From a virus, in IMG/VR virus record IMGVR_UViG_3300027881_000095, positions 1 through 22,043 of that record: a DNA stretch of 22,043 nucleotides; one strand, given 5' to 3'. The notes beneath the pieces are model-generated. The model worked only from the letters and a program-made list of their open reading frames with translations, was not told the DNA's origin and ran no database searches. Positions within the stretch are counted from its first letter, which is position 1. Every line of letters begins with the position of its first letter. Both the position numbers and the translations under genes were made by a program. This document shows, one piece after another, positions 4,056 to 17,305 of this stretch.

Positions 4056-4220
4056 ATGGCAACCTGTCTTGTCGCGCTGATGTTCACAATAGTTGAACTG
4101 AAGGTTTACCGTTGGGCTGCGAAAGAGTTCGTGCGCGACGAGGAACATGAGGCGCTCAAGGACCGCACACTCGAGTTGGAGAAGCAGGTTGCCGGCCTCA
4201 CCGCTCTCTTGGACGACTGA
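4056..4220 (+). CDS. small membrane-anchored coiled-coil protein (54 aa)
   Basis: ATG 4056 opens a 54-codon frame; a GTG at 4041 would add five residues (MLFDI). The first 20 residues are hydrophobic (ATCLVALMFTIVELKVY), enough for one membrane helix. The rest is a charged coiled coil (EEHEALKDRTLELEKQVAGL) ending in Asp-Asp. The last base of its stop is the first base of the next ATG (TGATG), so it is coupled to the metallophosphoesterase gene. There is no clear Shine-Dalgarno; a small hairpin (GCGCC/GGCGC, 4013-4026) lies in the 45-base gap upstream. The topology resembles small phage lysis or membrane proteins, but the real lysis cassette is 7 kb away, so the role is unknown. Confidence 0.5.
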   Translation: MATCLVALMFTIVELKVYRWAAKEFVRDEEHEALKDRTLELEKQVAGLTALLDD

Positions 4221-5113
4221 TGCCCTGGATCACCGCAAACGAAGCCGCCAAAATCTTGGGCATCTCGCCCGCACAGGTCCGGCACCGGGACCGCTATCGC
4301 GCGACGCGTCGCAGAGATCCAGAGGACGGCCTGTGGCGCTACTGGGTGCCCGCCACCGGGGAGCCCGAGGCGCCTGGGGACCAGGGGACGCGCAAATCCA
4401 AGCCCGTGCTCATCGCTTCGATCTGGGACGTTCACATCCCCGACCACGATCCAGGGATATGGGAGACGTTCCTCGACTGGGGTGCAGACGCAAAGATCGA
4501 CTGGCTCATCATCGGCGGCGATTTTCTCGAAGCACAGTCCTGTTCGCAGCACGGCGACTTCCACGTGCCGGCGCTGCAGGACGACGTTGACGCAGGCCGC
4601 AAGGCGCTGGAGGAACTGCGAGAGGTCTTCCCTTCCCAGAGGATCTGCTTTTTCCCCGGAAATCACGAGACGCGACTGCAGCGCATCACCGGGTCTCGTT
4701 TGCCGCAGCATATCGGGGTGCTCGAGTGGCCGTCGCTGCTTGACCTCGAGAGCCTGAGGATCGAATGGGTTGAGGAGCCCCTGCGCGTTGGAGATGTTGC
4801 CTTTCTCCACGGCCAATACACCTCAAAATACCACGCGGCCCGCCACTTGGATCAATGGCGAACGAGCGTTTGTTACGGCCACACCCACCGCCCCCAGACG
4901 TTCTTCCGCGGGGTTGGGTTGGACGGAGCCTTGTTGTCTGCGCACGGGATGCCCTGTATGCGCACGCTGCAGCCGGACTGGCTTGGTGGCAGGCCTTCGG
5001 GTTGGGCACATGGTTGGGGGTACCACGTGTTGGACGGTGATGTTCTTCACACGCAGATGCTGGTCGCGAAGGGGGGACGCGTTGCCTTTGGGAGCCGGAT
5101 CTATGGAGGTTGA
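4220..5113 (+). CDS. HTH-metallophosphoesterase fusion (297 aa)
   Basis: Residues about 4-40 form a MerR/excisionase-type helix-turn-helix (ITANEAAKILGISPAQVRHR with a short Trp-rich wing). After a Pro/Gly linker, residues 62-297 are a calcineurin-like metallophosphoesterase with the full metal site visible: D70-x-H72, G100-D101, G147-N148-H149-E150, H197 and G220-H221-T222-H223. Family members are two-metal phosphoesterases acting on nucleotides, nucleic acids or phosphoproteins; the substrate cannot be told here. The gene ends 11 bases inside the large terminase gene, and no separate small terminase is seen. The helix-turn-helix suggests that the enzyme is brought to DNA, perhaps near the packaging site, which is inference. 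The start is fixed by TGATG overlap with the small membrane protein gene. Confidence 0.85.
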   Translation: MPWITANEAAKILGISPAQVRHRDRYRATRRRDPEDGLWRYWVPATGEPEAPGDQGTRKSKPVLIASIWDVHIPDHDPGIWETFLDWGADAKIDWLIIGGDFLEAQSCSQHGDFHVPALQDDVDAGRKALEELREVFPSQRICFFPGNHETRLQRITGSRLPQHIGVLEWPSLLDLESLRIEWVEEPLRVGDVAFLHGQYTSKYHAARHLDQWRTSVCYGHTHRPQTFFRGVGLDGALLSAHGMPCMRTLQPDWLGGRPSGWAHGWGYHVLDGDVLHTQMLVAKGGRVAFGSRIYGG

Positions 5114-6617: not shown

Positions 6618-7051
6618 TGGCCCTTACACACCGGCAGATGCTCGAGCAAAGCAGGCCGAACATGCGTGGATTCGGCAGCCTTGAAGGCCCCGCTAAATCC
6701 GAGAAGCGCCTTCGGGATGAGAAGTTCGCCTCGCTCCTGGACAAGATCGGATATGCGCTGCCGATTGCAGGCGGGGCATACGGTGCGTTCCAGGGCGGGA
6801 CCAGCGCCGGGCTCTTGTCGTTCCTTGCCGCGGGCGGCCCAGCGAGCCTCCCGGTCTCTGTTCCAGCGGGACTGGCTGGCATGGGGGCAGGAGCGGGCGT
6901 GGGTTACGGGCTCGGCAAGGCCGCAGGCCAGATGGGGCAGGTCGGGCTCCAGCACTACTCGGAGAAGAAGCGCTCCCCCTACGAAGACGAGGACCTTGAG
7001 CAGCAGGCCCGGATGCAGGCAGCAGCGGCGCTCCTTGGCGGGTACGTGTAA
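6617..7051 (+). CDS. Gly/Ala-rich glycine-zipper protein, hypothetical (144 aa)
   Basis: Both ends share bases with neighbours (TGATG at the terminase stop, TAATG at the portal start), so it is coupled to packaging genes. Residues about 46-112 are rich in Gly and Ala with repeated small-xxx-small spacing (AGGAYGAFQGG, GMGAGAGVGYGLGKAAG), typical of a glycine zipper and of membrane-inserting segments. The flanks are polar and charged: a basic N-terminus and an acidic YEDEDLEQQ segment near the end. Glycine-zipper phage proteins are often ejected and insert into the host envelope, or act as small virion proteins. Either role would fit, and neither is proven. No enzymatic motif is seen. Confidence 0.65.
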   Translation: MALTHRQMLEQSRPNMRGFGSLEGPAKSEKRLRDEKFASLLDKIGYALPIAGGAYGAFQGGTSAGLLSFLAAGGPASLPVSVPAGLAGMGAGAGVGYGLGKAAGQMGQVGLQHYSEKKRSPYEDEDLEQQARMQAAAALLGGYV

Positions 7052-8958
7052 TGGCAGAATTCAAGCGCGCGACAACTGACCACGTGGACTATGAGCTGAA
7101 GGACAACTCCCGAGGTGATGATGAGCCCACGACGGTTGGAGAAGTCTTCCAAGAGATGATGGACGCGGAAAAGGGTCTTTCTAGCATACGTGGGCGCGCA
7201 GTCCGCAACGAGCGTTTTGTATATGGTGAACAGTTTCGCGATTGGAACGACGACCTCCAGGCCTTTGAGGACATATACACACCTCAGGACATCCCGAACG
7301 TGCATCGCAATCTTCTTCGCTCTCTTTGGGCCACCTACAACGCGCGCCTGCTAGAGGATCGGCCGGACGTCCATGCATGGCCCACGCATGCGGACCCTGG
7401 CGACGTTGGGGCGGCGAAGGTTGCGAACGCCCTCATGAGTCACATGCACAGCGTCCAGGACCTGGACGATTTGATGTGGGAACTGATCGGGCATGCACAG
7501 TTTGCGGGCCAGGCAGCCATAAAGGTTGTTTGGGACCCCACGGCGGGGCCACTTTCCGAAGGCGCACCTGTTCAAGATCCTGAGACGGGGGAGATCACCC
7601 TTGAGGGGGCCGGGGAGCCCACGGGAGAGGTGCAGTGGGAGGTTGCCACGGTTTTCGATCTTGTTTCTGACAACAGCGTGCAGCATATCGAAGATGCGAA
7701 CTGGTGCTATTTTCGACGCTACCTCACGAAGCACCAAGCCAAGATCTTGATGATGGAGCAGGACATTGATGAGGAGCCGCAGGAGGTTTCCATCGAGGTC
7801 TGGGATGACGGCAATATGGAGTCGGTGTCAGCGGTCGAAATGATCGAGATCTGGTATCGCCCGAGCGCTCGCTTCCCAGAGGGCCTGTACGCAGTGATCG
7901 TGAGCGGCAACGTGGTTGAGGTGATGGATTTCCCATACGACCACGGGGAGCTCCCTGTTTCGGTGATGAAGCTATCCGAGAGGCGCGGTACGCCCAACGC
8001 GGGTCGCACGCACCTTGACGACGCTGTGATTATCCAGCGCCAGATCAACGAACTGGTCTCCAGCAAAGCCCGTCTTGTCCGAGAGTGCGGGGCCGTGCGC
8101 CTGATGGGGCCAGACAGCGTGATCGACAACCTGGAGGAGGGGAATCACACGATCAAGATCGCAGACCCCGGGCAGGCGAGCATGGTGAAGTGGATCGAAC
8201 CCCCTGCCGTGCCGTCGCTTCTCTCTGAGGAGCTGCAGGACCTGATCGGCGCTTTATACGCAGTCTTCGGGTTGAACGAGATGCTCACTGGTGCGGCGAA
8301 TATCAAGAGCGGGACGGCGGCGCGGACGATTGCCTACCTGAACAAGCTGGACAGCCAGAAGATCTCAGGCGCTGCGCGGTCTCTCGGGAAGGCCCTGCGG
8401 AGGGGCTGGAGGCAGACGCTTGCGCTGTCTCAGCAATACATCCACGAGCCCAGGCTTATGCAGATCGCCGGGCCCGGCAAGGTGTTCGAGACCATGTCTT
8501 TCCAGGGTGCGGACATTGGCGGTGTTGACGTGCGGCTTGAGCCGAGCAGCGGCATCGAGCGATATCGCGCGGAAGAGGTCGGGGACATTGAGCAGAGTGC
8601 ACAGGCCGGCTGGATTGACCCAGCCCGAGCCGGCGAACTGCGGGAGACAGGCCTTGAAGAGACCGCGGCAGAGACGATGGATTCCCAGAGAGTTCAAAGC
8701 CAGGTCATACAGGCCCTTCAGGGGCAACTCACGCCACCCATGCAGAACGTCTCCCCAGTCGCAGCCATCGAAGAGATCCAAGTCGCAATCGCCAGCGTGG
8801 CCGAAGAGCGTCCTGACATTGTTCCCTATCTTGAGCAGCTGCTCATGGCCTACCAGCAGATGCTTGCCCAGGCCCAGGCGCCCGTAGAGCAAGCACAGCC
8901 ACAGCCCACAGAACAACAGCCTTTTGAGGAGCCCCCGATGGGCTCAGGAGTTCAGTGA
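7051..8958 (+). CDS. portal protein (635 aa)
   Basis: The portal forms the dodecameric ring at one capsid vertex through which DNA enters and leaves. The call rests on size, position directly after the terminase, and a recognisable pattern: an N-terminal helical region (RGRAVRNERFVYGEQ), LYAVIVSGNVVEVMDFPYDHGELPV in the middle, DDAVIIQRQINELVSSKARL as the ring-forming helix, then LIGALYAVFGLNEMLTG and ARTIAYLNKLDS as typical portal clip/crown elements. The last 40 residues are Gln/Pro-rich and probably disordered (AQAPVEQAQPQPTEQ). The length suits podovirus-type portals. The TAATG start couples it to the preceding gene, and its stop overlaps the next start. Confidence 0.85.
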   Translation: MAEFKRATTDHVDYELKDNSRGDDEPTTVGEVFQEMMDAEKGLSSIRGRAVRNERFVYGEQFRDWNDDLQAFEDIYTPQDIPNVHRNLLRSLWATYNARLLEDRPDVHAWPTHADPGDVGAAKVANALMSHMHSVQDLDDLMWELIGHAQFAGQAAIKVVWDPTAGPLSEGAPVQDPETGEITLEGAGEPTGEVQWEVATVFDLVSDNSVQHIEDANWCYFRRYLTKHQAKILMMEQDIDEEPQEVSIEVWDDGNMESVSAVEMIEIWYRPSARFPEGLYAVIVSGNVVEVMDFPYDHGELPVSVMKLSERRGTPNAGRTHLDDAVIIQRQINELVSSKARLVRECGAVRLMGPDSVIDNLEEGNHTIKIADPGQASMVKWIEPPAVPSLLSEELQDLIGALYAVFGLNEMLTGAANIKSGTAARTIAYLNKLDSQKISGAARSLGKALRRGWRQTLALSQQYIHEPRLMQIAGPGKVFETMSFQGADIGGVDVRLEPSSGIERYRAEEVGDIEQSAQAGWIDPARAGELRETGLEETAAETMDSQRVQSQVIQALQGQLTPPMQNVSPVAAIEEIQVAIASVAEERPDIVPYLEQLLMAYQQMLAQAQAPVEQAQPQPTEQQPFEEPPMGSGVQ

Positions 8959-9323
8959 TGAAGAAGATCTTCACCATCTCTCTCGCCATCGTTGCCGCAG
9001 CGGCACTGGTGGTGGTTCTTCTCCCCCAGCGCGCGGAGGCACTTGACCAGACACTGCCCGTGTTGCGTGACGGCGCGGTGACGTGCGGTGTCACGGCAAC
9101 TGCGATCCATTCTGCACTCACAAGCAGCAACATCGCCTCGATGGCCTGCGAGAACCCAAGCGCCACATGCGTGCGCGTCGGTGGATCGTCCGTTGGGGCG
9201 GCTGGCGGCATCGCCTACGGGGACGCCTGCACGGGCGGGAAGATCTTATCAATGGACGTGGCGCGCGCCTGGTGCATCTCGTCGGCGCCCACGCCCCTCA
9301 CCTGCACATACGCCACAAGATGA
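8958..9323 (+). CDS. exported six-cysteine protein (121 aa)
   Basis: ATG 8958 shares its first base with the portal stop (TGATG); a GTG at 8955 would add one residue. The first 28 residues are a strong Sec-type signal peptide: MKKIF, a long hydrophobic core (TISLAIVAAAALVVVLL), and a likely AEA cleavage site before L29. The mature 93 residues carry six cysteines (43, 64, 71, 91, 106, 116), suggesting three disulfides formed outside the cytoplasm, in a Gly/Ser/Thr-rich probable beta-sandwich (CVRVGGSSVGAAGG). No lipobox is seen. It could be a secreted or surface protein acting during infection. Alternatively it could be a virion decoration protein, for which a signal peptide would be odd. The stop overlaps the next ATG, so it is coupled to the LamG-like gene. 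Confidence 0.75.
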   Translation: MKKIFTISLAIVAAAALVVVLLPQRAEALDQTLPVLRDGAVTCGVTATAIHSALTSSNIASMACENPSATCVRVGGSSVGAAGGIAYGDACTGGKILSMDVARAWCISSAPTPLTCTYATR

Positions 9324-11002
9324 ACTGGATCCTCGCAACAGTCCTGGCTGCCTCCGTCAGCGGAGGGGCCACATTCAAGGGCCAGCTCACAGTAGGCGCC
9401 AATACAGCTGGTGCCGCGTCGGGCACCGCTCCGGCTGCGGGCGGCGGTGGGGGAAGCACGCTTGCGCTTGCAACGCTGCGCTATAATGCGGACGACCTTA
9501 CGCTGGCGAACGGAGACAAGGTCTCCTCGTGGCCGTCGACTGGGACCTACACCGATGCGACAGCCACGCTCACCCAGGGGACAGCAGCGGCTCAGCCATC
9601 ATTCAACAACCAAGACGCCGAGATGACAAACAGCGTTTACCTTGACCAGCCGGGGGGAACGACGAGCCTTTGGATGAAAACAACTGGCCTTGCGACGCCC
9701 GTTCCATATCCCGCAATAATTTGCAGCCTGTACAAGGCGGACAGTGCAACCCCGAACCCAACTGAGCAACACATCTGGGAGGCGTTCGCTCAGCCAGGCG
9801 CAACGCAAAATCAACATGCTCATATCTACTATTGGCGAGGACTCGACTTCGAAAATCCCATGGTGACCGCACAGCGAAGCCACCACGCAGAGTGGTACTC
9901 CTACTGCATAGAGCTCAGGGACGGTGCGACGTCGAAGCTGGCGCGCAACGGGGAGCAGATAGCCCAGGGCACGTTCACTACGGGGCAAAACCAAATAGTG
10001 GATTTTTCCGTTGGAGGAATTCACAACGCGGCGACATTCTACTTCTTTTACAAATTCACCGGAAAGATCGCAGACGTCGCGATTTGGGGAGATATCGACA
10101 CTCTCGGGGTGAACCTGGCAGACGTATCGCGCGACTTTGCCGCAGAGCACAGCATCCCAAGGGCCAGCCCCCACCCAGACGAGCCCTACCCATACAACAC
10201 TTGGTCATCGACGACGGTTTGCGACAAATCCAACGAATACGGATGCGTCAGCGCATCGAATACTCCGCAGTCGGACGGCTGCTCAGTTCGACAGATTTTC
10301 CCCGAGGGCTCTGGTGCAGAGCCGACCAATACGAACTACGGCTCGACGGGGAACATCATGAATTGGACCTCAACCGGGCAGCAATATCAGCTTTGCGAGA
10401 CCGGCCCTGCGGACCTCGTCAACGGCCACCCACACATCTCCCTCCGACCCCCGACCGCCTCAGACCAGGTCGGCCTGACCGTCACCGGCGGCCTGCAGCA
10501 AAACCTTCTACAGCCCTGGTCCATCTGCATGACAATCAGAATCAACGCATATCCGGCCGTGGGCAACAAACGCTACCTGTTCACCGCGCTGAACGGAGGC
10601 GTACAGCATGAAGAGTGGTATTTCGAAAACGTCGGGGGGACCACCAGCCTAAACCTATGGGGGGAATCGAACGAACCAGCATGCGCCACCCCCCCAGGCC
10701 CCCCCTGCCAAATCGCAACCGCCATCGCGACGCCAGCGCTCGCCACATGGTCCGCGCTCTGCGTGCAATATGATGGCACGGGCTCGGAATGGGCGCTGAA
10801 GCAGCAGGGCCAGGCAGCCCAGACTGGCACATGGAACCCCGACCCCGCCCTCTATTACCACACCTCATACAGCCAGTTTTTTTTCGGAGATACCGGCGGA
10901 AGAAAAGCGCCAAACATGGACTTTACCAAAGTCTCGGTTTTCGGCACGGGAGTGGACACCGAGGCCATGGTTGAGTCCCTCGCAACCCAATACGGCCTAT
11001 GA
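9320..11002 (+). CDS. large LamG/lectin-like protein, possibly exported (560 aa)
   Basis: ATG 9320 overlaps the previous stop (ATGA); the frame extends to 9083 but only through shadow sequence. An N-terminal hydrophobic stretch (MNWILATVLAASVSGGA) may be a weak signal peptide. It is followed by a Gly/Ala linker. Two concanavalin/LamG-like jelly-roll regions can be read at about residues 50-270 and 340-558, each with the alternating strands and the IADVAIWGD or FTKVSVFG type closing strand common in LamG domains. Between them is a Cys-rich segment (VCDKSNEYGC, GCSVRQ). Such domains bind sugars, so a receptor-binding, capsid-surface or host-surface role is likely. Position between portal and lysis genes, next to a signal-peptide protein, is unusual for a tail fibre. 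Confidence 0.7.
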   Translation: MNWILATVLAASVSGGATFKGQLTVGANTAGAASGTAPAAGGGGGSTLALATLRYNADDLTLANGDKVSSWPSTGTYTDATATLTQGTAAAQPSFNNQDAEMTNSVYLDQPGGTTSLWMKTTGLATPVPYPAIICSLYKADSATPNPTEQHIWEAFAQPGATQNQHAHIYYWRGLDFENPMVTAQRSHHAEWYSYCIELRDGATSKLARNGEQIAQGTFTTGQNQIVDFSVGGIHNAATFYFFYKFTGKIADVAIWGDIDTLGVNLADVSRDFAAEHSIPRASPHPDEPYPYNTWSSTTVCDKSNEYGCVSASNTPQSDGCSVRQIFPEGSGAEPTNTNYGSTGNIMNWTSTGQQYQLCETGPADLVNGHPHISLRPPTASDQVGLTVTGGLQQNLLQPWSICMTIRINAYPAVGNKRYLFTALNGGVQHEEWYFENVGGTTSLNLWGESNEPACATPPGPPCQIATAIATPALATWSALCVQYDGTGSEWALKQQGQAAQTGTWNPDPALYYHTSYSQFFFGDTGGRKAPNMDFTKVSVFGTGVDTEAMVESLATQYGL

Positions 11003-11232
11003 GAAACCTACCATCCTGGGCTGCGGTCATCGTTGCCCTAATAGTTCCCCTGAGCGCCGCCGCTGCAACCTACATGGCCACCAGCGCCACGACCGAAGCT
11101 GACCTAAAAAGCGCTCAGGCTTCGATTGGTAAGCTCGAAGGACGCATTGAGGCCATCGACCAAAGGCAGCGCATCATCGAGCGCGACGTTGCCACGATCC
11201 TTGCCATCCTGAGAGGCATCTCCCCCCTTTGA
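10999..11232 (+). CDS. membrane/coiled-coil protein, spanin- or holin-like (77 aa)
   Basis: The start overlaps the LamG-like stop as ATGA. Residues 6-25 are a hydrophobic helix ending in AAAATYMATSA, which could be either a membrane anchor or a signal peptide. Residues 32-70 are a coiled coil (LKSAQASIGKLEGRIEAIDQRQRIIERDV). One N-terminal membrane helix plus an outer coiled coil is the layout of Rz-type inner-membrane spanins. Small holin-like proteins can look similar. It lies 3 bases before the endolysin, which supports a lysis role. No outer-membrane spanin partner with a lipobox was found nearby. Confidence 0.6.
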   Translation: MRNLPSWAAVIVALIVPLSAAAATYMATSATTEADLKSAQASIGKLEGRIEAIDQRQRIIERDVATILAILRGISPL

Positions 11233-11235
11233 GCC

Positions 11236-11802
11236 ATGACCGTTGACCACAGACCAGACCTTGCGGGCGACCTGCGACTTCACGACCAAAGAAAGAAGCC
11301 GATCCGCCACATCGTACTCCACCGGAACACCGTCTCGGACCTCTGGTTCAAAGACCACGTCAAAGATGAGAAGGAGCCCGTTGAGGCTGCGGCAAGCTGG
11401 TTCCAAGGGGCCGATTGGAGACTCTTTCCGTACCACTTCTTCATTGATCGGCCGACGCGAGACGGACAAAGCTCGATCACACAAGTGCAGACCCTCGACA
11501 CCGTGTCCCCCCATGCACACGGCGTGAATGGCACCTCCATTGGAGTCGCCCTCAACGTAGATGGCAGAAAGCGCATACCTCCACACGGCATGCAGATCGC
11601 AACGGTGTGGTTGCTGGCCCATCTTCTCGCCATACACCCAGAAGCCAGGATCGTCAGACACAGCGCCATAACGTCCAAGCAGTGCCCAGGGGATCGCGTC
11701 CCTGTGGAGCAGATGGCGGAGGATGCCCTCTTCTTTTCAGAACCATGCAGCCAGTCCGACCTAGAGGCGGCTGGGATCGTGGAGGCCAGAGAATGGAAGT
11801 AG
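11236..11802 (+). CDS. endolysin, N-acetylmuramoyl-L-alanine amidase (188 aa)
   Basis: The enzyme cuts the bond between N-acetylmuramic acid and the stem peptide of peptidoglycan at lysis. It belongs to the Amidase_2 (T7 lysozyme/PGRP-like) family. The zinc ligands are H29 (IVLHRN), H142 (RHSAIT) and C150 (KQCPGD), and K148 matches the catalytic lysine. The spacing H142-K148-C150 equals H122-K128-C130 of T7 lysozyme. The tyrosine in YHFFI (Y66) lies where T7 has its active-site tyrosine. There is no signal peptide, so a holin or similar must release it. The extra 30-40 residues at the C-terminus (after PGDRVPVEQM) are helical. T7 lysozyme also inhibits its RNA polymerase, but nothing here shows that function. 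Confidence 0.92.
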   Translation: MTVDHRPDLAGDLRLHDQRKKPIRHIVLHRNTVSDLWFKDHVKDEKEPVEAAASWFQGADWRLFPYHFFIDRPTRDGQSSITQVQTLDTVSPHAHGVNGTSIGVALNVDGRKRIPPHGMQIATVWLLAHLLAIHPEARIVRHSAITSKQCPGDRVPVEQMAEDALFFSEPCSQSDLEAAGIVEAREWK

Positions 11803-12226: not shown

Positions 12227-13096
12227 ATGGACGAACTAAGTGAAGCGACGGCGATGCTCGAAGAGGCCCGTGCCGGGGACGTACCCCAGCAGGACCCCAT
12301 CGAGACCCAGCCGGCTGAAGAAGTAGAAGCCGTAGAAACCGCAGCCGAGGAGGACCCGGAGGGGCCCATCTCGGAACCAACCGAGTCCGAAGAGATCGAA
12401 GCCCAGCCCCCTGAGGAGCCGGCCGATGAAGCAGCGGAGGATGAGGAGAAGCAGGAAGCATCCGGCCAAGATGAGCCAGAGCAACCGAGGAAAAGGTCAA
12501 CGTACCAGAGGATGAAGGGAAAGATCGAGGAGAAGGAAAAACAGGTAGTCGAGCTTCAGGATCGTGACCAGCAGTGGGCAGAGGTTGCCAATGGGTATCG
12601 ACTAGATGCCGAGCAAGCTCAGGCCGAAATAGAGCAACTCAGGCGAGCGCTCTCGGACTATGGGCACGAGGAACATTCAGACTCCGGCGAGCTGAGGGCG
12701 GCGAAGAAGGAGCTCCAAGAGCTTCGATTCAACGCTCAGACGCAAGAGGAGCACTCGAAGAAGCGCACCGAGAGAGAACAGCTTGCAGCGAGAGACCGTC
12801 TTGCGGAGCAATACGTGGAAGAAGCCACGGCACTTGGTGAGAAATACGGCGTTACACCTGCAGACATTCTCCTTGAGGCGAGCAGCCCCCGTGTTCAACA
12901 GAAGAAGATGAGCATGGAGCAGGTCGCAACCTACCTTTCAGCTATCTCCGGCGCCACGACCAAGAAGAAGCAACTCGAAACCAACCGCAAGGCACCGAAA
13001 CCCGCAGGGGGCAAGGGCCGCGCTAAAACGATCGACTATCCGGCAACCGTGGACGGAGCAACAGACTTCATCCTCGCCCGGAGAAGCGGAAACTAG
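12227..13096 (+). CDS. scaffolding protein (289 aa)
   Basis: Scaffolding proteins guide capsid assembly and then leave or are digested. This one is called from position directly before the major capsid gene and from sequence style. Residues about 20-87 are very acidic and Pro/Glu/Ala-rich, thus disordered. Residues about 95-200 are a long coiled coil (KGKIEEKEKQVVELQDRD, AQAEIEQLRRAL). The C-terminal 50 residues are Lys/Arg-rich (TTKKKQLETNRKAPKP), the usual place for the helix-turn-helix that binds the coat protein. No protease motif is seen, so self-cleavage is not indicated. The start has AGGAGG 4 bases upstream. Confidence 0.85.
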   Translation: MDELSEATAMLEEARAGDVPQQDPIETQPAEEVEAVETAAEEDPEGPISEPTESEEIEAQPPEEPADEAAEDEEKQEASGQDEPEQPRKRSTYQRMKGKIEEKEKQVVELQDRDQQWAEVANGYRLDAEQAQAEIEQLRRALSDYGHEEHSDSGELRAAKKELQELRFNAQTQEEHSKKRTEREQLAARDRLAEQYVEEATALGEKYGVTPADILLEASSPRVQQKKMSMEQVATYLSAISGATTKKKQLETNRKAPKPAGGKGRAKTIDYPATVDGATDFILARRSGN

Positions 13097-14727: not shown

Positions 14728-15426
14728 ATGGGGTACACGCTCGGAGAGGCGAAAACGCGCATCCTCACAGACCTTCTGGACGATCCTGACAAGGTTCGCT
14801 GGGATGACGCTGCCGTTGTGCGAGCCGTCAGGCCTGCGATATCCAGATGTGCGAATCTGTATGTCTCTCACGGTGGGGATAAGCTGAGAGAGAACGCCAC
14901 ACAGGACCTCGGTGTTACCACCCCAGCAGGATCGTTTATCTGGGACGCGTGGGTAGGGTCGTCCCCCTCGGAGTGGATCGGCTCAAGGCATGTCTCGCTT
15001 GTCCACTCCAGCGGCGTTGAGCAGCCCCTGAAGGCGATCCGCCCACAGGACGCAAGGGTGAAATACACCGGCTCCGGCACCGTGAAGCAAAGTGTGATGG
15101 GCAAGCTGGTGTTCCCCACGGTTGACGCAGACTACCTTGTGTCGCCTTCGACTGGGGACGCAGGGAACGTCGGCGGTGCATTCGACGACTGGGTCTGTGT
15201 CACCGCTGCCCTCGACATGGAGTCCAAGGAAAGAGAAAAACCATCGAGAAGGCTGGAGCACCAGGAAGCAAGGCTCAGAGAGGCGGCGCTTGGGCAAATC
15301 AACAGCCCGGCAACGTCTAGGTTCCCAGGAAAGTCCGGCTTCCACCCTACGCTTTATTACGCCATAGACGAAACCGTGCTTGTGCACCCCTTCAACTACC
15401 GCATCTGCCAGCTATACATCCGGTAA
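14728..15426 (+). CDS. head-to-tail adaptor-like protein (232 aa)
   Basis: This protein probably docks on the portal and forms the upper tail or neck ring. Its N-terminal 50 residues (LGEAKTRILTDLLDD, VRWDDAAVVRAVRPAISRC) follow the pattern of gp6/gp4-type adaptors, in which a helix ends in Leu-x-Asp-Pro/Asp, then Trp-x-Asp, then a helical segment. The middle is beta-rich, and a later helix (VCVTAALDMESKEREKPSRR) matches the second half of such adaptors, where a long helix binds the portal. It starts 2 bases after the previous stop and ends in TAATG shared with the first beta-helix gene. Position downstream of the coat gene also fits. Confidence 0.7.
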   Translation: MGYTLGEAKTRILTDLLDDPDKVRWDDAAVVRAVRPAISRCANLYVSHGGDKLRENATQDLGVTTPAGSFIWDAWVGSSPSEWIGSRHVSLVHSSGVEQPLKAIRPQDARVKYTGSGTVKQSVMGKLVFPTVDADYLVSPSTGDAGNVGGAFDDWVCVTAALDMESKEREKPSRRLEHQEARLREAALGQINSPATSRFPGKSGFHPTLYYAIDETVLVHPFNYRICQLYIR

Positions 15427-16160
15427 TGTTTCAACGACCTCGGCGCCAGGTCCTCAACGCGCTGCAGCCCTCGCAGCACAAGGTAGAAGTGCGCAACGAG
15501 GGAGACTTTCTTCGCGGCATAACCACAGCACAGGAGAGATACGCCCGGCAGGACAAGACGATCCCCCCAGGCTTTCTCTTCGAGATCGTAGAGCCGCTCG
15601 TCATCACGAACACCATCATCATTCCGGTCGACACACCCGGCGTCACAGTGTGGTCCCCTGCAAGACTCTCGATCACGGCAACCAAAGATATGGACAAGCT
15701 CTTTGAGATCCGGGCCGAGAACTGCACCTTCAGCAACCTGTCCGTGAACGATACGAACGCCAAGGACATCGGCATGATGTTCCACCTGGCAGACACCGCA
15801 CGCTTCGCGACCATCGAGAACATCACGGCACATGGGCAGCGCTTCGTGGGTGGCAGCGCGACTCCACCCCAAAACACCGTGGTCTCCAACTGCCTCTTCG
15901 TCCTCAAAAGCTCCGGGTCTGTCCTAGAGCCTGCTGTCCTGGCGGGGTCAATCGGCAAGGTGGTGGACAATGTTGTCCCCAGGAGGATCGACTGCACCGG
16001 CCGTGAGACGGCGATCACGGGGAACGCGGTCCCAGGGATAACGGTTTATGGTGGGGGCGTGTCGGGCGCGTGCTCAATCGCCAACAATATGCTGAGTGGG
16101 TCCACCATTGACACTACTGGCGCAGCCTTTGGATGCGTCATCTCGGGGAACGTACCATGA
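15426..16160 (+). CDS. beta-helix protein 1, tailspike-like (244 aa)
   Basis: The start shares its first base with the adaptor stop (TAATG). After a short basic N-terminus (MFQRPRRQVLNALQPS), the protein has repeated short strands with Asn, Thr, Gly and Val at turns (TFSNLSVNDTNAKDIGMMFHL, NCLFVLKSS, SIANNMLSGSTIDTTG, CVISGNV), the look of a right-handed parallel beta-helix as in pectate lyases and tailspikes. It ends on a typical strand-turn, ISGNVP, without a cap domain. The beta-helix may continue functionally in the next protein. Enzymatic residues cannot be assigned. Likely role: tail-associated or capsid-surface sugar binding or depolymerase. Confidence 0.7.
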   Translation: MFQRPRRQVLNALQPSQHKVEVRNEGDFLRGITTAQERYARQDKTIPPGFLFEIVEPLVITNTIIIPVDTPGVTVWSPARLSITATKDMDKLFEIRAENCTFSNLSVNDTNAKDIGMMFHLADTARFATIENITAHGQRFVGGSATPPQNTVVSNCLFVLKSSGSVLEPAVLAGSIGKVVDNVVPRRIDCTGRETAITGNAVPGITVYGGGVSGACSIANNMLSGSTIDTTGAAFGCVISGNVP

Positions 16161-17305
16161 CGATTGCCGGGACAGACAAGGACATCGTCGCCGGGAGGAC
16201 CGGCAACACACTCTTCGTAGACGCACAATGGGGCGAAGACACTACGAAGGGACTGCGGGAATACTCAAACAGGCCCTTCAAAACCATCATGGCCGCAATC
16301 AACGCCGCTACCGCAGGGGACACGGTGTTCGTCATGCCCGGCGAGTACGATGAAGAGACCGGGGTTGACTGCAAGGACGGCGTCTCCATCGTGGGCCAAA
16401 GCCAAGACAAGTGCGTCATAACGGCCACACTCGTAGTCGCAGCCAATGAAGAAGTGGTGTTGATGGCTGAAAATATGACGCTACAGAACTTCACCATAAT
16501 CTCTGACCCAGACCCTGCACTGGTCGGAACAGGTCTCCGCTTCCCAGCCGGTGGGGCCAACGCGAACAGCACCGCCAGAAACATCACAATCAAAACAGCG
16601 GCAGGGAAAAACGCCAGCGGGATCTCAGACCAAACAACCACTGCGGGGCTAGGTTTCGACCGGTCTCGCGCGATGCTAGACAATGTCACCACTGCGGCAA
16701 GCGGGCTAACGAACGGGTACATCAAATCCGGCGTAGGCAGCACCGCGATACGAAACTGCACATTCCAGGGCTTCGTTGGATGCAGCATCGCGGCCGGAAC
16801 AGTTGACATCCGCGCATGCACCTTCATTGGATATCTCGGGTTCAGCGTCGGAGCAGGAGGAGCCGTCTACGTTGACCGGGGCACGACCTGGACGAACCTG
16901 ACAAACGCCGGAACCCTCAACCGAGCCGCGGGGTATCTCGCTGACGACATGGTGACCGTTCAGGCAACATCTGACATTGTCATAAACGCCGCAGACACGC
17001 TCCTCCTAACGCTTCCCCCAATAGCAGCAAACCAAAACCCCGTGCACGTCCACTTCACAACGGGCCTCGACCGTCCTGGAGTTGGCAACCGAGTTGGAAC
17101 ATTCAAGCTCTTCAGAGATGGCCTCGAAATAAACGTCCTGGACAGATACGAGCAACGCCTACGCACCGCAGACGACGAGTGGACCACCAGCATGCACTGG
17201 GTTGACGAGGCGCCCGGGAACACACCCGTCTACACAATCATGGCCACAGCGAGTGGCACCAACTACCGGGCACACTTCAACCGGCGAGCAACGGCAACGA
17301 TATGA
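16157..17305 (+). CDS. beta-helix protein 2, tailspike-like (382 aa)
   Basis: ATG 16157 overlaps the previous stop (ATGA); the frame is open to 16133 but an earlier start would only add shadow. Residues 17-75 (NTLFVDAQWGEDTTKG, RPFKTIMAAINAATAGDTVF) are the standard entry into a pectate-lyase-like beta-helix, followed by rungs such as GVSIVGQSQDKCVI and MTLQNFTIIS through about residue 250. Residues about 265-382 form a different, compact beta domain (VHVHFTTG, LFRDGLEINVLDRYEQRL, MHWVDEAPGNTPVYTIMA), like the small beta-sandwich heads at tips of tail spikes. A Cys in CKDGVSIVG and one in DKCVI may be buried. Likely a second tailspike or fibre component binding or degrading host glycans. Confidence 0.75.
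   Translation: MTIAGTDKDIVAGRTGNTLFVDAQWGEDTTKGLREYSNRPFKTIMAAINAATAGDTVFVMPGEYDEETGVDCKDGVSIVGQSQDKCVITATLVVAANEEVVLMAENMTLQNFTIISDPDPALVGTGLRFPAGGANANSTARNITIKTAAGKNASGISDQTTTAGLGFDRSRAMLDNVTTAASGLTNGYIKSGVGSTAIRNCTFQGFVGCSIAAGTVDIRACTFIGYLGFSVGAGGAVYVDRGTTWTNLTNAGTLNRAAGYLADDMVTVQATSDIVINAADTLLLTLPPIAANQNPVHVHFTTGLDRPGVGNRVGTFKLFRDGLEINVLDRYEQRLRTADDEWTTSMHWVDEAPGNTPVYTIMATASGTNYRAHFNRRATATI

What the first reader, a model, noticed from the sequence alone, without database searches (positions are those of the whole stretch)
8958..11002. Two adjacent predicted exported proteins between portal and lysis genes
The first has a strong Sec signal peptide with a clear cleavage site and six cysteines in its mature part. 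The second has a hydrophobic start, LamG-like sugar-binding folds and several cysteines. They are translationally coupled (ATGA) and precede the lysis genes. Virion proteins are normally assembled in the cytoplasm, so export signals here suggest a role at the host surface or periplasm: superinfection exclusion, receptor masking or envelope weakening. A simple alternative is that they are head-decoration or fibre proteins whose N-termini mimic signal peptides.
Basis: partly seen in the sequence, partly recalled or inferred. Interest (0 to 1): 0.55.

Follow-up and report, generated by a model that had tools for sequence, protein, structure and literature searches.

The report
Exported disulfide protein pair in phages
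A group of tailed phages carries, in the middle of its head-building genes, a pair of proteins that look built to be sent out of the infected bacterium and locked by disulfide bonds, perhaps to cover or alter the surface that the phage attaches to.

Summary
gA (8958-9323) belongs to a family found directly after the portal gene in 17 of 23 clade contigs readable there, window included. All 17 pass a signal-peptide rule; gB follows in 15 of them and 13 pass, the window's gB failing on N-terminal charge alone. In 10 near-complete relatives, rule-passing genes cluster between portal and capsid: 20 of 58 against 10 of 429 elsewhere. Mature gA has an even number of cysteines in 16 of 16 members, and most come and go in pairs, predicting C43-C106, C64-C116, C71-C91. 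A family model of mature gA is a confident jelly-roll (pLDDT 89.9). Its signal-less relatives sit beside capsid or portal genes of other phages and have 0-1 cysteines. gB is highly variable: LamG-like, LamG plus GDSL esterase, or fibre-like. Most likely this is a late, exported pair that masks or edits the receptor. Export of gA is well supported; the function is inferred. Assembly onto virions after lysis is not excluded.

The parts
7051..8958 (+). portal protein, P22-like; its stop overlaps the start of gA by one base
   Evidence: PHROG 156 E 3.4e-27; Pfam P22_portal 28.4 bits, cut-off 26.1
8958..9323 (+). gA: 121-aa protein with export signal, member of a conserved family
   Evidence: translation; family in 17 of 23 readable clade contigs, window included
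8958..9041 (+). gA signal peptide, residues 1-28, AEA|L cleavage site
   Evidence: rule with controls; Ala before the L[SA]NP-like mature start in 13 of 16 members
9042..9320 (+). gA mature domain: small all-beta jelly-roll, predicted disulfides C43-C106, C64-C116, C71-C91
   Evidence: AF2 from a 16-row family alignment, pLDDT 89.9, pTM 0.77; cysteine co-occurrence
9320..11002 (+). gB: 560-aa variable partner, ATGA-coupled to gA, 10 Cys
   Evidence: translation; a gene at the same place in 15 of 17 gA-bearing contigs
9320..9370 (+). gB hydrophobic N-terminus, weak signal peptide (no K/R before the core)
   Evidence: fails the rule on N-terminal charge; 13 of 15 gB pass
9653..10090 (+). LamG-like (Laminin_G_3) region of gB
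   Evidence: E 1.8e-6, 22.2 bits, below the cut-off of 27.6; BLASTP to L087 and L100 gB; no hmmscan hit
10999..11232 (+). small protein with N-terminal membrane segment and coiled-coil-like rest; spanin or holin candidate
   Evidence: weak Rz-like PHROG hits, best E 0.033; passes the signal rule
11236..11802 (+). N-acetylmuramoyl-L-alanine amidase (endolysin)
   Evidence: Pfam Amidase_2 E 7e-12
12227..13096 (+). scaffold candidate, Cys-free acidic protein between the pair and the capsid gene
   Evidence: position; phmmer relatives at the same place in L011, L013, L008, L019
13106..14287 (+). major capsid protein
   Evidence: PHROG 14242 E 2.5e-15

Best explanation
gA and gB are late phage proteins exported through Sec, cut by signal peptidase I, and folded outside the inner membrane with disulfide bonds. 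gA is a small, conserved jelly-roll related to head-module proteins of other phages. gB is a fast-changing recognition partner (LamG-like, LamG plus GDSL esterase, or fibre-like). Together they bind or edit the surface sugar or receptor that the phage uses, so that progeny do not stick to the producing cell and its debris and superinfecting particles are kept out. Shown here by sequence: conserved export signals (gA in all members, gB in most), paired cysteines, predicted fold of gA, variability of gB, absence of the pair from some close relatives. Inferred: late expression, that gA and gB act as a pair, that the target is the phage's own receptor, and that the result is receptor masking.
For: Signals: 17 of 17 gA and 13 of 15 gB pass a rule that passes 12 of 12 exported E. 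coli controls and 4 of 32 non-exported ones. gB proteins are mostly unrelated in sequence (11 of 105 pairs detectable, against 53 of 120 for gA and 136 of 136 for portal), yet all 15 have a hydrophobic core near the N-terminus: the signal is kept while the rest changes. Rule-passing genes: 20 of 58 between portal and capsid, 10 of 429 elsewhere in 10 records. Cysteines: even number in 16 of 16 mature gA and in 13 of 14 mature gB that have any, against 120 of 216 background ORFs. Alignment columns 23-108 (14 both, 2 neither), 52-121 (6, 10) and 51-98 (3, 13) show no single; 65-89 and 85-92 show one each, both in L024. Recognition modules: LamG hits in 8 and GDSL in 2 of the 15 records searched, one per record, all inside gB. 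Accessory nature: gA is missing from 6 of 23 contigs, all within one nested subclade and needing three changes on the portal tree.
Against: No host is known (two genome-contig scans gave nothing of use), so neither receptor nor envelope type is known. The window's gB and L020's gB fail the rule on N-terminal charge. L089 gB has an odd number of Cys (5), and counted full-length, with the signal, L008 gA (7) and L007 gB (5) are odd too. The exclusion proteins T5 Llp and T4 Spackle are described as early, while this pair sits among head and lysis genes. LamG modules also occur in virion proteins (PHROG 10356 'virion structural protein' hits L087 gB at 2.3e-8 and L020 gB at 1.4e-6). tblastn with three gA members found none in 50,697 phage records, so no cultured example is at hand. 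SignalP was not available; the signal rule is my own. Members are related, so counts are not independent.
Confidence: 0.45

Rival explanations
1. Periplasm-matured virion appendage. gA and gB are exported, folded and disulfide-bonded outside the cytoplasm, released at lysis, and then dock on finished virions as a late-added decoration and fibre.
For: Signal-less relatives of the gA domain lie directly after the capsid gene (L124, ctEqG8) or the portal gene (Streptomyces phage Speedwell gp9), and, by a weak fold match (E 6.7e-3), near an SGNH tail spike in Pseudomonas phage tf. gA and gB lie inside the head operon. Some gB look like fibres or LamG/GDSL tail modules.
Against: Would be a new assembly route for tailed phages; 6 of 23 clade contigs do without gA; the window also encodes beta-helix tail-spike-like proteins at 15426-17305 that do not pass the signal rule.
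Confidence: 0.2
2. Ordinary virion proteins assembled in the cytoplasm, whose hydrophobic N-termini only resemble signal peptides, perhaps trimmed by a phage protease.
For: Position in the head operon; the gA domain has signal-less relatives in head modules. A paper on Porphyromonas phages reports capsid proteins with signal-like N-termini thought to be cut by the prohead protease (PMC10367356, passages).
Against: Paired, even cysteines, while the three signal-less homologues found by sequence have 0 or 1 Cys; signals on 13 of 15 gB although most of their mature parts are not detectably related; no prohead protease turned up among the 20 of 34 window proteins scanned.
Confidence: 0.12
3. Envelope weakening or lysis aid: the pair, encoded just before the amidase, loosens the outer envelope or capsule from outside and helps release.
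For: Adjacent and coupled to the lysis genes in the window; two relatives carry a GDSL esterase in gB; L008 and L010 add an exported protein with an HEMVH motif.
Against: Of 10 gB scanned only 2 show an enzyme domain (GDSL); the window's amidase has a recognisable relative near the pair only in L100 among the loci compared, so nearness to an amidase is not general.
Confidence: 0.13

Closest known systems
T4 Spackle (PMC7677548, passages read)
   Same: Phage protein in the periplasm, localisation signal cleaved, small, disulfide-bonded, blocks superinfection.
   Different: Alpha-helical, early gene, inhibits the tail lysozyme; no partner like gB mentioned; gA is all-beta and lies in the head operon.
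T5 Llp and Rtp45 superinfection-exclusion lipoproteins (PMC9586334 and PMC12685063, passages read)
   Same: Small periplasmic phage proteins acting at the receptor; Rtp45 has a disulfide; the T5 paper names preventing adsorption to lysed cell fragments as a purpose.
   Different: Lipid-anchored; gA has no lipobox cysteine at its cleavage site; no large variable partner mentioned.
Small jelly-roll proteins of phage head or tail modules (ctEqG8 1287-1553, Streptomyces phage Speedwell gp9; by weak fold match Pseudomonas phage tf gp60 with its paralogue gp61)
   Same: Same domain by sequence (first two, linked through L124) or similar predicted fold (tf, BFVD rank 41, E 6.7e-3).
   Different: No signal peptide to the eye and 0-1 cysteines.
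Bacillus Ena1B endospore pilin (7a02)
   Same: Disulfide-using jelly-roll of similar size: Z 7.1, rmsd 2.8 A, 80 residues, 16% identity.
   Different: Z below 8 may be only a common arrangement; gA has no cysteine in its first 14 mature residues.
LamG and SGNH/GDSL receptor-binding or tail-spike modules of tailed phages (recalled as a class)
   Same: GDSL in gB of L020 and L023; Laminin_G_3 at or near the cut-off in gB of L020, L021, L022, L023, L087.
   Different: Here they follow an export signal.

Membership tests
Sec/SPase I exported proteins (gA) | basic N-region, hydrophobic core, small residues at -3 and -1 | tested here: met
   17 of 17 by my rule. SignalP not available.
Sec/SPase I exported proteins (window gB) | basic N-region before the hydrophobic core | tested here: not met
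   charge 0, other parts of the rule met; 13 of 15 gB pass. Window gB is called exported by analogy only.
Disulfide-bonded extracytoplasmic proteins (gA) | cysteines paired across the family | tested here: met
   by co-occurrence and even counts, not by chemistry
T5 Llp / Rtp45 type exclusion lipoproteins | lipobox with Cys at +1 | tested here: not met
   gA mature start is L29, no Cys near the cleavage site
T5 Llp / Rtp45 / T4 Spackle exclusion proteins | blocks superinfection | not testable with these tools
   needs a host and an assay
Small jelly-roll proteins of phage head/tail modules | shared domain | tested here: met
   gA profile finds the frame of L124 8311-8577 (E 9.4e-9), 75% identical to ctEqG8 1287-1550
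Small jelly-roll proteins of phage head/tail modules | no export signal | tested here: not met
   gA carries one; the relatives show none to the eye
Small jelly-roll proteins of phage head/tail modules | present in the virion | not testable with these tools
   needs virion mass spectrometry
Laminin_G_3 (window gB) | profile score over the curated cut-off | tested here: not met
   22.2 bits against 27.6; hmmscan of whole gB none. L020, L022, L023 pass, L021.
Ena1B-type disulfide-linked pilins | same fold | tested here: inconclusive
   Z 7.1
Ena1B-type disulfide-linked pilins | N-terminal connector with cysteines that link subunits (recalled) | tested here: not met
   no Cys in mature residues 1-14 of window gA

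The most novel reading that the evidence does not exclude
Tailed phages that mature part of their virion outside the cytoplasm: gA and gB are exported, oxidatively folded in the periplasm, and joined to finished particles during or after lysis, gA docking on the head or portal vertex as its signal-less relatives may do and carrying gB as an exchangeable recognition arm.
Probability: 0.18. Interest if true: 0.88.

Novelty: new variant of a known kind. Interest (0 to 1): 0.62.

Why it matters
The exported phage proteins I read about (T5 Llp, Rtp45, T4 Spackle) are single small proteins. Here a whole clade keeps an export cassette at one fixed place inside the head operon, built from domains that elsewhere lie in head or tail modules, with a conserved partner and a fast-changing recognition partner. 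It gives a defined system in which to ask how a phage stops its progeny from sticking to the cell that made them, or whether tailed phages can finish parts of the particle outside the cytoplasm. In the listings of seven paper searches (two returned nothing because all six terms were required) I saw no report of such a cassette; I read passages of only a few of those papers, and most subscription journals and all preprints are missing from that library.

Tried and rejected
Direct relatives of gA and gB: tblastn in phages (two other gA members), pattern scans of viral contigs, Pfam and PHROGs, PDB sequences: nothing useful. gA's one weak PHROG hit (phrog_5807, E 0.042) covers the signal and the start of the mature part and was not used. 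Of the 16 mature gA scanned against PHROGs, eight families matched one member each, best phrog_30212 at 3.2e-4, without a description; one, at E 0.11, is called tail fiber protein. Single-sequence AF2 of gA was poor (pLDDT 51.2) and not used. Portal and capsid as single queries found nothing in viral contigs, capsid nothing in phages; portal alignments did (one search kept 80 of 259 relatives, and pattern scans find only part of what exists). Host search in genome contigs: no relative by portal, then by terminase one 7.7-kb contig of an uncultured Clostridia genome (26% over part of it), too weak to name a host.

Two halves of window gB as internal repeats: not significant (score 44, reached by 68 of 500 shuffles). 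gB sharing a domain with other window proteins: phmmer of the window proteins against each other listed none at E<=10. Foldseek against PDB gave no match at E<=0.001; cupin, nucleoplasmin and tectivirus rows are taken as general jelly-roll likeness. Streptomyces phage WheeHeim (a BFVD hit) is a tectivirus; passages of its paper (PMC6950372) did not tell what the hit protein does. Passages of PMC11436027 and PMC8144416 were read and not used.

Rows left out of counts: L009 gA is split by a frame break; it was left out of the 16-row alignments and the parity count, but its first piece is in the 17 of 17. L014 ends 173 bases after the portal, L025 and L105 inside it; none was counted. L015 and L016 have identical portals, as have L014 and L019. 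L006 gB (no Cys, contig ends) is not in the 14. Searches covered 15 of the 17 gA-bearing records (not L006, L086). Besides the five column pairs, other gA cysteines (in L023, L087, L089, L100) stand in columns shared by one or two members and say nothing. Mature ends for the cysteine counts were set by me. In the E. coli control 44 features of 51 were used; elfC, insA4 (both cut), hyaA (twin-arginine), appX, gfcA, the tRNA and the insertion element were left out, and the class labels rest on the record's product names and my recall. Background ORFs are mechanical, not verified genes; of the 15 background ORFs that pass the rule, several lie in the same cassette. In one search the automatic gene and start choice does not count gA of L018, L021 and L100 or gB of L023, which lowers the inside number.
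Full report
What is there. The window is a 22,043-base linear virus record of a phage with a P22-like portal (Pfam P22_portal 28.4 bits against a cut-off of 26.1; PHROG 156 E 3.4e-27). The order is terminase, 144-aa protein, portal, gA, gB, small membrane-anchored protein, amidase, two small genes, scaffold candidate, capsid protein, then tail-type genes. gA (8958-9323) starts one base inside the portal stop; gB (9320-11002) and the next gene each start with ATGA overlaps.

Relatives. gA and gB alone found nothing useful in phage records, Pfam, PHROGs or PDB sequences. The portal did. An alignment of five portals and then closer ones brought in a clade of IMG/VR contigs. In a portal tree the clade is split from three outgroup phages (Shocker, Jasmine, ctEqG8) with 100/100 support. 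Of its 24 rows, window included, 23 can be read after the portal; 17 have gA there and 15 of these 17 have gB next. The six without gA lie in one nested subclade of 12 rows and need three changes; L009 and L011 are sisters on short branches (0.019, 0.038), yet L011 has an unrelated gene that fails the signal rule in place of the pair. So the pair is widespread across the clade but can be missing.

Export signal. I wrote a simple rule (basic N-region, uncharged hydrophobic core, small residues at -3 and -1) and applied it without tuning. In 44 genes of an E. coli K-12 stretch it passes 8 of 8 exported and 4 of 4 lipoproteins, 3 of 23 cytosolic and 1 of 9 inner-membrane proteins. It passes 17 of 17 gA, 13 of 15 gB and 2 of 31 other window genes. 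The two gB that fail, the window's and L020's, have no net positive charge before the core. At the presumed start of mature gA (L[SA]NP or similar, placed by eye) 13 of 16 members have Ala at -1, and of these 11 have A or V at -3 and two have I: AEA|LDQT in the window, ANA|LSNP, VNA|LANP, ARA|LSNP; L006, L018 and L024 have no clean site there. Over 10 near-complete records, 20 of 58 genes between portal and capsid pass against 10 of 429 elsewhere (Fisher 1.6e-13, genes taken as independent, which related contigs are not).

Disulfides. Mature gA is rich in cysteine (4.99 per 100 residues against 1.34 in background ORFs) and the number is even in 16 of 16 members (2, 4, 6 or 8); in mature gB it is even in 13 of 14 that have any, L089 (5) being the exception; in background ORFs 120 of 216. 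L008 gA and L007 gB each have one more Cys inside the signal, so their full-length counts are odd. Cysteine columns of the gA alignment come in partners: 23 with 108 (14 both, 2 neither), 52 with 121 (6, 10), 51 with 98 (3, 13), 65 with 89 (6 both, 1 single, 9 neither), 85 with 92 (5 both, 1 single, 10 neither). The single cases of the last two pairs are one protein, L024, whose two cysteines would pair with each other. For the window this predicts C43-C106, C64-C116 and C71-C91. Members are related, so these counts are not independent, but the 23-108 pair is missing together in L023 and in L100, which lie apart in the portal tree. Paired cysteines are what a protein folding outside the cytoplasm would show.

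Fold and origin of gA. From the 16-row alignment AlphaFold2 gives mature gA as an all-beta domain with one short helix, pLDDT 89.9 and pTM 0.77. Against predicted viral proteins, 16 match at E<=0.001, 84 to 268 residues long, none with a function in its name. Against solved structures nothing passes that mark. The second look is led by the receptor-binding spike P1 of phage PM2 (Z 8.7, rmsd 3.4 A, 85 residues) and includes Bacillus Ena1B (Z 7.1, 2.8 A, 80 residues); jelly-rolls are common, so this shows fold only. Among the loci held, the gA profile finds one frame outside the clade, in L124 (E 9.4e-9): from its first ATG at 8311 it gives 88 aa, no signal, no Cys, and the capsid-like gene ends just before it. 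Its relatives are ctEqG8 1287-1553, the gene after the capsid gene (75% identity, 1 Cys), and Streptomyces phage Speedwell gp9, the gene after the portal (34.5% over part, E 2e-3, no Cys). Pseudomonas phage tf gp60, a weak match by predicted fold (E 6.7e-3, rank 41) that I identified by its length of 95 aa, and its paralogue gp61 lie near an SGNH tail spike and show no signal. So gA looks like a head-module jelly-roll that gained a signal peptide and disulfides, although the direction of change was not tested.

gB. gB changes far faster than gA: 11 of 105 pairs are detectable by BLASTP, against 53 of 120 for gA and 136 of 136 for the portal. Of 10 gB scanned against Pfam, L020 and L023 end in a GDSL lipase domain (E 4e-17 and 3e-13), and L021, L023, L087 and L100 score for Laminin_G_3 (E 6.8e-7 to 0.015; only L021 over the cut-off); others look like fibre proteins by eye. 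Over 15 of the 17 gA-bearing records LamG hits occur in 8 (3 over the cut-off) and GDSL hits in 2, one per record and all inside gB. The window's gB has LamG likeness in its first half (E 1.8e-6, under the cut-off; BLASTP to L087 and L100); the second half is unassigned.

How it most likely works. Shown by sequence: a coupled pair, kept in most of a clade, with export signals on gA and most gB; disulfide-type cysteine pairs; a predicted jelly-roll gA; a variable gB, some with sugar-directed modules. Inferred: late expression from the position; action at the periplasm or surface; gA and gB acting together; binding or editing the receptor so that progeny do not stick to the producing cell and debris. 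A purpose of this kind is stated for exclusion proteins in the T5 paper (PMC9586334, passages). T4 Spackle (PMC7677548, passages) is a precedent for a cleaved, disulfide-bonded periplasmic phage protein, and Rtp45 (PMC12685063, passages) for a periplasmic phage protein with a disulfide that prevents receptor binding; no gB-like partner is mentioned in what I read. The chief rival is a virion part finished outside the cytoplasm; nothing here excludes it.

Limits. No host, no expression data, no virion data, no SignalP. The clade rests on metagenomic contigs. Scanned against Pfam and PHROGs: 20 of 34 window genes.

Known or new. Exported phage proteins as such are known; [quoted passage not shown] A fixed export cassette inside a head operon did not appear in the listings of my paper searches, which cover only an open-licence library. 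I file it as a new variant of a known kind.

Noticed in passing
L008 9268-9864 and L010 10027-10689: Signal-bearing, extremely cysteine-rich proteins (28 and 32 Cys) in the same cassette after gB.
   Followed up: partly
L008 9840-10391 and L010 10665-11216: Signal-bearing protein with a lipobox-like LVAGC and an HEMVH motif, suggesting a zinc-peptidase-like lipoprotein; motifs judged by eye (L008 sequence, L010 start).
   Followed up: no
L009 8884-9277: gA is split by a break in the reading frame (sequencing error or decay) while the following gB stays open and keeps a signal; intact copies exist in relatives.
   Followed up: partly
L011 8855-9223, L012 8820-9308, L015 5661-6152, L017 8725-9114: Unrelated small genes that show no signal take the place after the portal in relatives that lack gA.
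   Followed up: partly
L007 8801-9250, L020 7088-7438, L021 11168-11740, L100 10972-11595: A third gene with a hydrophobic, signal- or anchor-like N-terminus often follows gB; the proteins look unlike each other.
   Followed up: no
window 15426-17305: Two overlapping genes: the second scores for DUF1565 (E 4.3e-9) and tail PHROGs, the first only weakly for a beta-helix (E 0.068); likely tail spikes, neither passing the signal rule.
   Followed up: partly
window 4220-5113: Metallophosphoesterase (PHROG 221 E 1.1e-25) with a weakly helix-turn-helix-like start, directly before the terminase.
   Followed up: no
record of L024 (G011) 30332-31906 and 34831-35286; record of L010 (G004) 29138-30280 in the orientation; L087 1376-1843; L100 4870-5406: Lipoprotein-like starts (for example LFFVACG, LLLSSCS, LLLMSC) in genes outside the cassette in some relatives.
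   Followed up: no
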